DNA from: OCS116 cluster bacterium AG-390-I16
GTDB lineage: Bacteria > Pseudomonadota > Alphaproteobacteria > MED-G09
DNA: 41,207 bases
Direction: 5' to 3'
NCBI GenBank assembly: GCA_003279705.1
Contig: QCGZ01000009.1
Span: 1 to 41,207, forward strand
Shown piece by piece: positions 7,667 to 18,713 of the stretch (position 1 is its first letter; the number at the start of each line of letters is the position of its first letter). The position numbers were made by a program, and so were the translations under genes. The notes under the pieces are model-generated. The model was not told where the DNA came from and did not search any database. It worked only from the letters and a program-made list of their open reading frames with translations.

Positions 7667-11897
<4,231 letters not shown>

Positions 11898-11958
11898 GAA
11901 TTGCTTGTATATTAATTATTTATCTGTTGCTATAATTTTTTTAAGGATATTTAAACTT

Positions 11959-12564
11959 ATGTTTAATAATTTATTAAAACTTCAAAAAATTTATAAAAAA
12001 CAATTTATTATTTTTTTGTTATTTTTTCTTTTTCTTTTTTCAATTGATTGTTCTGCTCAATCAAGTAGCAAAAGTCCTTTCAAGGAAGGTTTAGTCGTGA
12101 CTGCGGTGAAATCAGGAACAATGTCTGATTTATTGTACTCGATTCAAGTAGGCGGTTCTCCAAGTGAATTAGATTTTGATGAAGTACCTGCCCTATTATT
12201 AGCGGTAGAGAGAGGGAGATCTGATATGGTTGATTTCTTATTAGAAAAAGGAGCTCGGGTTAATCAAAGAGATGATAACAAAAGAACTGCATTATCAATT
12301 GCATCTAGAAAAAATAATTTTAATTTGGTTTCAGAACTAATTAAATTTGGCGCAAACCCAGATAGATCAGGGCCTAACAAAGAAACTCCGTTAATTATAG
12401 CCTCTAGATTTGGCAACTTTGAGGCTGTTAAAGCCTTACTGGAGGGAGGGGCATATCCTGATGATACCGACCTTACTGGCAGGACAGCTTTCCAATGGGC
12501 AAAAATTAAACATTATAAAAGGATACAAGAAGTTCTTATTGAATATGGTGCATATGATAATTAA
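11959..12564 (+). CDS. Secreted ankyrin-repeat protein of unknown function
   Basis: 201 residues from the ATG at 11959, with AAGGA upstream at 11943-11947. An earlier ATG at 11896 would add 21 unlikely hydrophobic residues before the signal peptide. The N-terminus has a basic stretch and then a long hydrophobic core (about 15-30) ending in DCSAQ, consistent with cleavage after SA, so export to the periplasm is likely. The aspartate before the cysteine argues against a lipoprotein. About four ankyrin repeats follow (about 76-105, 108-138, 141-170, 174-201), with typical LLLAVERG, TALSIASRK and ETPLIIASRFG helices. It lies between sco and ctaB. The repeats suggest a protein-binding role; the partner is unknown. 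Confidence 0.85.
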   Translation: MFNNLLKLQKIYKKQFIIFLLFFLFLFSIDCSAQSSSKSPFKEGLVVTAVKSGTMSDLLYSIQVGGSPSELDFDEVPALLLAVERGRSDMVDFLLEKGARVNQRDDNKRTALSIASRKNNFNLVSELIKFGANPDRSGPNKETPLIIASRFGNFEAVKALLEGGAYPDDTDLTGRTAFQWAKIKHYKRIQEVLIEYGAYDN

Positions 12565-17604: not shown

Positions 17605-17994
17605 ATGGCTGAAGAAGGTCAAGAGCATCCAATTAGTACATACCTTTGGGTATGGTTATTACTTTTTGTTTTAAGTGCATTTTCATATGCAGTTGATTAT
17701 ATAGGATTTCAGGGATTTACTCGCTGGAGTTTAGTCCTTCTTTTTATGTTCCTGAAGGCATATTTTATTTGTGCTGTTTTCATGCATATGGTTTGGGAGA
17801 GAATGGCTTTGGTACTTGGCCTTTTTATTCCTACATTTGCAATTATTGTCTTTATTGGAATAATGGGTTTTGAATCTGATTATACCCAGCTTTCAAGAAA
17901 GGTTTTCTTTGACACTGGTAAGCCACCTACTGTTTATGCTGTTCCTCACGCTAATAGTCATTCTAAAGATCATTCAGGAGAAGAAGCTCATTAA
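17605..17994 (+). CDS. Cytochrome c oxidase subunit IV family protein
   Basis: 129 residues with three membrane helices (about 11-30, 39-62 and 66-90), as in the prokaryotic COX4/CyoD-type subunits. The LKAYFICAVFMHM segment is the family hallmark. These small subunits stabilise the oxidase core and its copper and heme sites. The last 16 residues are hydrophilic and contain four histidines (HANSHSKDHSGEEAH), which might bind metal. GAGG precedes the ATG, nine bases after coxC. It is the last recognised oxidase subunit of the operon, and the Sel1-repeat gene starts ten bases further on. Confidence 0.88.
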   Translation: MAEEGQEHPISTYLWVWLLLFVLSAFSYAVDYIGFQGFTRWSLVLLFMFLKAYFICAVFMHMVWERMALVLGLFIPTFAIIVFIGIMGFESDYTQLSRKVFFDTGKPPTVYAVPHANSHSKDHSGEEAH

Positions 17995-18004
17995 TTTTGA
18001 AATT

Positions 18005-18535
18005 ATGCTAAAATTATTCTTTTCATATATTTTTTTAATTATTTTTTCATTGCCTGTATCAGCAGAAAATTCATTCATTGCCAAAATTGAGAGTTTAGCT
18101 GAGAGAGGCTTTGCAGATGCTCAATATAATCTAGCTAGAATGTATGCTAACGGTGAATCTGTAGATCAAGATTTCATTTCTGCAGAGTTCTGGTTTAGAA
18201 AATCAGCTGAACAAGGAAATATTGATGCTCAATATCGGTTAGGCAGAATGTATGACTCAGGTCTAGGCGTTGATGTAAATAAAAAAGAAGCATTCAAATG
18301 GTATTCATTATCTGCAGCACAAGGAAGCATTGAGGCACAATATAATTTAGGCTTAGCTTATCGTTTCGGTGTTGGTGTTGAACAAAATTTTACAAAATCA
18401 CTAAAATGGTACAAAAAGTCTGCCTCAAAAGGACATAGTGGGGCTCAATATAATTTAAATTTACTATTTGAAGAAGGATTGGCTACTAGAAAAGATATAT
18501 CAGACGCAATTAAATGGTATAGATGTGGAAGATAA
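18005..18535 (+). CDS. Secreted Sel1-repeat protein at the end of the cox operon
   Basis: 176 residues from the ATG at 18005. Longer upstream frames overlap the subunit IV gene and place the signal peptide internally, so they are rejected. Residues 1-20 are a signal peptide ending PVSA before ENSF, so the protein should be periplasmic. Four Sel1/TPR-like repeats follow (about 34-69, 70-105, 106-141, 142-174), each with an AQYNLxxMY-like first helix and an AxxWYxxSAxQG-like second helix. There is one cysteine (C174). It starts ten bases after the subunit IV gene with no room for a promoter, so it should be co-transcribed with the oxidase. A role in oxidase assembly is inferred from position only. 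Confidence 0.87.
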   Translation: MLKLFFSYIFLIIFSLPVSAENSFIAKIESLAERGFADAQYNLARMYANGESVDQDFISAEFWFRKSAEQGNIDAQYRLGRMYDSGLGVDVNKKEAFKWYSLSAAQGSIEAQYNLGLAYRFGVGVEQNFTKSLKWYKKSASKGHSGAQYNLNLLFEEGLATRKDISDAIKWYRCGR

Positions 18536-18546
18536 GTTTTGAAATC

Positions 18547-18574
18547 AGTAATTATGATTACTATAATTTTTTTT
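18547..18574 (+). terminator. Candidate terminator of the cox operon
   Basis: AGTAAT (18547-18552), a TATG loop and ATTACT (18557-18562) form a 6-bp hairpin; ATAA and then eight T (18567-18574) follow. It begins 12 bases after the Sel1 gene stop. The stem is short and AT-rich, so the call is moderate. Confidence 0.35.
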
Positions 18575-18645
18575 ATAACACTAATTATGACGCTAATTTA
18601 CTTTAATATTGGATAAAATAATTTTTGTTTATTTAACTTTGGAAT

Positions 18646-18678
18646 AAAAAAACGGTTATCCAAAATATTAAACCTGTT
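18646..18678 (-). terminator. Candidate terminator after tRNA-Ala
   Basis: On the minus strand, AACAGGTT (18678-18671) pairs with AACCGTT (18657-18651), leaving one bulged A and a 13-base loop, and a run of T follows. It lies about 36 bases beyond the tRNA 3' end. It faces the cox operon terminator across a short AT-rich gap with no supported gene. Confidence 0.45.
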
Positions 18679-18713
18679 ATTATAAGAATAATAGAAAATT
18701 TCATTTTATAAAT

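What the first reader, a model, noticed from the sequence alone, without database searches (positions are those of the whole stretch)
18005..18535. Periplasmic Sel1-repeat protein co-transcribed with cytochrome c oxidase: a possible bacterial counterpart of COA7
Seen: a signal peptide plus four Sel1 repeats, starting ten bases after the subunit IV gene, with a terminator-like hairpin only after it. Known: human COA7 (SELRC1) is a Sel1-repeat protein of the mitochondrial intermembrane space needed for complex IV assembly; that space corresponds to the bacterial periplasm. Inference: this may be an assembly or stability factor for the oxidase. COA7 is cysteine-rich and this protein has one cysteine, so common function would not mean the same redox chemistry.
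Basis: partly seen in the sequence, partly recalled or inferred. Interest (0 to 1): 0.58.

Follow-up and report, generated by a model that had tools for sequence, protein, structure and literature searches.

The report
Clade-specific Sel1 protein in oxidase operon

Summary
The gene is real: a 176-aa Sel1-repeat protein with an apparent signal peptide, 10 nt after a prokaryotic COX4 gene, in a PS1/OCS116-like marine alphaproteobacterium. The oxidase is of coxMNOP type (two subunit-III genes) and the only COX1-family oxidase found in this genome.

Linkage: cox4 is followed by Sel1 in 13 of 18 family genomes (the other 5 cannot be assessed) and in 0 of 132 oxidase loci examined outside the family. 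dN/dS is 0.06-0.15; the last repeat, with one invariant cysteine (DAIKxYRCG), is the most conserved part.

COA7 matches only through the shared Sel1 fold: generic bacterial Sel1 proteins match better, and COA7's disulfides cannot form. An accessory role for the oxidase is plausible; COA7 orthology is not.

New: Sel1 is not the last gene. A conserved 24-28-aa transmembrane microprotein ORF starts 2-10 nt after it in 13 of 13 loci. No terminator was detected after Sel1. The family lacks detectable Cox11 and Surf1, but another genome lacks both without a cox-linked Sel1 gene.

The parts
18005..18535 (+). Sel1-repeat protein, 176 aa, apparent signal peptide 1-20, four SLRs, single invariant Cys174 in C-terminal DAIKWYRCGR
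18539..18616 (+). microprotein ORF (TTG start), 25 aa, one hydrophobic segment, 3 nt after the Sel1 stop; counterparts in 13 of 13 family loci, in-frame pN/pS 0.15
17605..17994 (+). cox4, prokaryotic subunit IV (PF03626), 129 aa
16892..17596 (+). second subunit III gene (coxP-like), 234 aa
16246..16866 (+). first subunit III-like gene (coxO-like), 206 aa
14471..16249 (+). cox1, subunit I, 592 aa; the only PF00115 match in the genome
13615..14451 (+). cox2, subunit II with CuA ligand motif CAELCGVGHHAM (read by eye; consensus quoted in PMC9145763)
12567..13430 (-). ctaB, heme O synthase
11292..11897 (-). SCO-like protein (assigned by eye from its [11 protein letters not shown] motif; NCBIfam gave no hit)

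Best explanation
A lineage-specific periplasmic Sel1-repeat (SLR) protein that is made together with the only COX1-family oxidase of this marine clade and serves it as an accessory scaffold in assembly or stability. Shown: the gene, its fold class, its linkage to cox4 in all assessable family members, purifying selection, and a following microprotein ORF under coding constraint. Inferred: export to the periplasm; transcription as one unit; the four SLRs form a curved surface that binds a periplasm-exposed part of the oxidase or of its copper-delivery proteins; the very conserved fourth repeat with Cys174 is the docking end; and the microprotein (charged N-terminus inside, short C-terminus outside by the positive-inside rule, recalled) is its membrane partner or a small oxidase subunit.
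For: Adjacent to cox4 in 13 of 18 family genomes, the other 5 not assessable. Spacing 8-17 nt. In L085 of the second genus both flanks are rearranged (an unrelated ORF between the ankyrin gene and ctaB; panB/panC-like ORFs after the microprotein; names by eye), yet cox2-cox1-cox3a-cox3b-cox4-Sel1 stays intact, and the microprotein follows in the four second-genus loci L017-L020. dN/dS 0.06-0.15 for Sel1 against 0.02-0.07 for cox4 and 0.01-0.05 for cox3b where computable. SLR4 has 19 of 32 invariant positions against 7 of 36 in SLR2; the C-terminal motif occurs only in family loci. One COX1-family gene in this genome and in 16 of 18 family genomes.
Against: No functional data. Linkage is confined to one family: 0 of 132 loci elsewhere, so the same oxidase type works without it. 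G118 is 100% complete, has this oxidase type, no Cox11 and no Surf1, and no Sel1 gene beside cox, so the protein is not a general requirement. SLR proteins serve many unrelated processes. Operon tails collect unrelated genes: in the 12 outside loci viewed the ORFs after cox4 vary.
Confidence: 0.45

Rival explanations
1. Passenger: a general periplasmic SLR scaffold (envelope maintenance, signalling) that happens to be expressed from the end of the cox operon and stayed there by vertical descent in a small, slowly rearranging genome.
For: Found only in one family; SLR proteins are common in the class without any tie to oxidases (331 of 385 genomes match); in the 12 outside loci viewed the ORFs after cox4 vary.
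Against: Flanks on both sides are rearranged in the second genus while cox4 and Sel1 stay joined with 8-17 nt spacing; strongly conserved C-terminal module.
Confidence: 0.32
2. Structural add-on: the Sel1 protein and/or the microprotein are stable accessory subunits of the mature oxidase (compare CydX of bd oxidase, CcoM of cbb3 oxidase), not assembly factors.
For: A single-helix microprotein at the operon end, under coding constraint; [quoted passage not shown]
Against: No purified complex; the microprotein matches no Pfam family above cut-off and no NCBIfam family.
Confidence: 0.15
3. Replacement for missing CuB/heme factors: the Sel1 protein with the microprotein takes over work of Cox11 and Surf1, which the family lacks.
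For: Cox11 0 of 18, Surf1 0 of 18, Caa3_CtaG none above cut-off in 18; Cys174 invariant.
Against: G118 lacks Cox11 and Surf1 and has no cox-linked Sel1 gene; one Cys and one or two His after residue 20 do not resemble known copper chaperones (recalled).
Confidence: 0.06
4. True bacterial orthologue of COA7.
For: Same fold class; VIA Z 15.7, rmsd 2.5 over 155 residues; topologically equivalent compartment (recalled).
Against: Generic bacterial SLR proteins match better in sequence and fold; no disulfide pattern; its C-terminal motif and cox linkage are restricted to one bacterial family.
Confidence: 0.02

Closest known systems
Generic bacterial Sel1-like repeat proteins (LceB 8sxq, Oxalobacter SLR 6ok3/6orc, c5321 4bwr, LpnE 6deh)
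   Same: Fold, repeat length and best sequence matches
   Different: No tie to an oxidase is stated for them in the listings seen; the DAIKxYRCG end was found in no locus outside the family among those held (PDB entries not checked for it)
Human COA7 (SELRC1), 7mqz
   Same: SLR fold; inferred equivalent compartment; reported role in complex IV assembly (PMC9163361 passages)
   Different: COA7 is described as heme-binding and as reducing disulfides in SCO1/SCO2, with 13 Cys and five disulfides; this protein has one Cys; 20% identity
coxMNOP-type cytochrome c oxidase operons (Bradyrhizobium, Mesorhizobium and others)
   Same: Gene order cox2-cox1-cox3a-cox3b-cox4; coxMNOP clusters described in PMC5492768 (passages). 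That the window's operon is of this type rests on gene order and subunit similarity, not on a match to a named CoxMNOP protein
   Different: No Sel1 gene near any of 92 such loci outside the family
Oxidase microproteins CydX, CioY, CcoM
   Same: Short single-helix protein encoded at an oxidase operon (CydX, CioY: PMC11955535 passages; CcoM: only its reference title there)
   Different: No sequence-family match; different oxidase classes

Membership tests
Sel1-like repeat (SLR) protein, PF08238 | Tandem Sel1 repeats scoring above the curated cut-off | tested here: met
   137.5 bits against 30.7; four helix pairs in the model, pLDDT 89
COA7 | Cys-rich SLR with five disulfides | tested here: not met
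   One conserved Cys, Cys174; COA7 disulfides as listed in PMC12114033
COA7 | COA7 is the closest relative by sequence | tested here: not met
   32nd of 33 PDB sequence matches
COA7 | COA7 is the closest fold | tested here: inconclusive
   Rank 29 by Foldseek; ninth by VIA, Z 15.7 against 19.4; all SLR folds score alike
COA7 | Heme binding and disulfide-reductase activity | not testable with these tools
   needs purified protein
Cytochrome c oxidase assembly factor (functional class) | Loss reduces functional oxidase; not part of the mature enzyme | not testable with these tools
   needs a mutant
Cytochrome c oxidase assembly factor (functional class) | Conserved genomic linkage with oxidase genes | tested here: inconclusive
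   13 of 13 assessable in the family, 0 of 132 outside
Cox11_CtaG or Surf1 | Match to PF04442 or PF02104 | tested here: not met
   At E <= 0.001 the protein matches only Sel1 and, below its cut-off, TPR_27 in Pfam

The most novel reading that the evidence does not exclude
The Sel1 protein and the 24-28-aa membrane microprotein form a dedicated two-part module, anchored by the microprotein and docking through the invariant C-terminal repeat and Cys174, that matures the only COX1-family oxidase of a marine clade in which Cox11 and Surf1 are not detectable.
Probability: 0.12. Interest if true: 0.65.

Novelty: new variant of a known kind. Interest (0 to 1): 0.38.

Why it matters
Known oxidase assembly factors differ strongly between bacterial groups and the set is thought incomplete (PMC9145763, abstract and passages). 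A clade whose only COX1-family oxidase has no detectable Cox11, Surf1 or above-cutoff Caa3_CtaG, but carries a conserved Sel1 protein and a microprotein in the same operon, offers two concrete candidates for missing parts. If true, it would show that Sel1 scaffolds were recruited to oxidases independently in mitochondria and in bacteria.

Tried and rejected
COA7 orthology: rejected on sequence rank and cysteine pattern, with fold rank unhelpful. Sel1 as a necessary stand-in for Cox11/Surf1: weakened by G118. General linkage of Sel1 to cox operons in Alphaproteobacteria: not found, 0 of 132 loci (92 coxMNOP-type, 40 canonical COX3 loci). Of the 92, 91 hold at least 600 nt after cox4; L247 holds 14 nt. 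The 80 loci are only the best of 559 confirmed relatives, and the 40 canonical loci were the higher-scoring ones of the 115 genomes with a match. Terminator and promoter scans: about as many or fewer than in shuffles. An orthologue outside the family: the best outside match in 385 class genomes has E 1.4e-47 against 7.6e-89 or better inside. A similar microprotein after cox4 elsewhere: 7 of 92 loci hold some hydrophobic small ORF, none alike by eye. Literature searches naming Sel1 or COA7 with cytochrome c oxidase listed 0, 10 and 5 papers; from titles and abstract starts none concerns a bacterial oxidase-linked Sel1 protein, and none of them was read. The original COA7 paper is not held.

Full report
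Identity of the window. The window is one contig of a 1.12 Mb, 77% complete genome. Its closest named relatives by the cox3b gene are OCS116 cluster AG-390-A19, PS1 clade AH-321-D15 and MAGs labelled Rhodobiaceae or Hyphomicrobiales. The held family, which is also the whole held order, has 18 genomes in three genera.

The protein. ORF 18005-18535 encodes 176 aa. Pfam Sel1 scores 137.5 bits. An AlphaFold model from six family sequences has mean pLDDT 89 and pTM 0.79; it shows a long N-terminal helix followed by four helix pairs. The N-terminus looks like a Sec signal peptide (by eye). The nearest solved structures are generic bacterial SLR proteins and SEL1L.

The oxidase. The gene order cox2-cox1-cox3a-cox3b-cox4 is shared with 92 outside loci, many from rhizobia, and fits coxMNOP clusters (PMC5492768 passages), not the canonical aa3 operon. 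The host has one COX1-family gene; of 18 family genomes 16 have one, G013 has two (4% estimated contamination) and G012 has none.

Linkage. Sel1 orthologues, cox3b and cox4 are found in the same 13 of 18 family genomes, next to each other. In four of the other five the contig ends inside cox1 or cox3a (G009, G015, G017; G011), and in G012 no COX1 is found, so these five say nothing either way. Outside the family no Sel1 ORF was found in 132 loci: 75 named coxMNOP-type loci, 17 from unnamed class genomes and 40 canonical COX3 loci. The same family alignment finds Sel1 proteins in 331 of 385 class genomes, so it is sensitive enough. In all 13 loci the first start codon after the cox4 stop lies 8-17 nt downstream. 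In L085, of the second genus, both flanks have changed while cox2 to Sel1 stay joined.

Selection. Pairwise dN/dS is 0.06-0.15 for Sel1, 0.02-0.07 for cox4 and 0.01-0.05 for cox3b where dS could be computed (many dS values are near saturation). Sel1 thus evolves faster than the oxidase subunits but is clearly constrained. Conservation is uneven: SLR4 has 19 of 32 invariant positions, SLR3 17 of 36, SLR1 13 of 36, SLR2 7 of 36. The C-terminal DAIKxYRCG motif with its Cys is in every family copy and in no other locus held.

A new part. Directly after the Sel1 stop lies a 24-28-aa ORF with one hydrophobic segment, M(K/R)S...TL.(Y/F)F, in 13 of 13 loci; the start is TTG in six and ATG in seven. 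Within the three groups of relatives its pN/pS is 0.15 in frame and 0.48 and 2.13 in the other two frames; in the largest group pairwise differences by codon position are 36, 10 and 137, while in the small, very similar third group they are 7, 4 and 5 and say little. It has no Pfam match above cut-off and no NCBIfam match. The operon therefore does not end with Sel1.

Assembly-factor inventory. In the 18 family genomes Cox11 has 0 matches, Surf1 0, Caa3_CtaG none above cut-off (one at 17.9 bits), and PCuAC is found in 13. Of 17 outside genomes with the same oxidase type, 13 have Cox11 and 12 Surf1. G118, 100% complete, lacks both and has no cox-linked Sel1 gene. So this oxidase type can apparently exist without them, and the Sel1 protein is not required for that.

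COA7. By sequence COA7 is 32nd of 33 PDB matches; by Foldseek rank 29; by VIA ninth with Z 15.7, rmsd 2.5 Angstrom over 155 residues. These values reflect a shared repeat fold. COA7's reported chemistry, heme binding and disulfide reduction in SCO1/SCO2 (PMC9163361 passages), goes with a Cys-rich protein (PMC12114033 passages), which this is not. It may act on the same enzyme; it is not a COA7.

Judgement. The most likely reading is a lineage-specific accessory protein of the oxidase, probability about 0.45; a passenger gene is the main rival (0.32). The co-encoded microprotein is, in my view, the more surprising part.

Noticed in passing
window 18539-18616 (+): Conserved 25-aa transmembrane microprotein ORF (TTG start) 3 nt after the Sel1 stop, with counterparts in 13 of 13 family loci and strong coding constraint.
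   Followed up: yes
window 18633-18704 (-): A second, convergent hydrophobic micro-ORF (23 aa, MKFSIILIITGLIFWITVFLFQS) just downstream of tRNA-Ala; recovered in 6 of 9 same-genus loci with the exact start pattern used; pN/pS 0.27 in frame against 0.84 and 1.32.
   Followed up: partly
family genomes G000-G017: No Cox11, no Surf1 and no above-cutoff Caa3_CtaG in 18 genomes although 17 have a COX1; how CuB is inserted is open. Four of 17 outside genomes with the same oxidase type also lack Cox11.
   Followed up: partly
window 11896-12564 (+): Ankyrin-repeat protein with a likely signal peptide (probable start near 11956, by eye) between the SCO-like gene and ctaB; seen in family loci L081-L085 and L253-L255 and in none of the 132 outside loci.
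   Followed up: partly
G000:C17:8708-9217: A second Sel1-repeat protein (289-codon frame), 32% identical to the first over the match, also seen in other family genomes; on another contig than cox.
   Followed up: no
G013:C29:14945-16285 (L211): A second COX1, 38% identical to the window's, in one family MAG; may be contamination.
   Followed up: no
L246, L249, L133, L112, L154, L158, L106, after cox4: Other, unlike hydrophobic small ORFs within 150 nt after cox4 in 7 of 92 outside loci; operon tails of this oxidase type may hold more microproteins.
   Followed up: no
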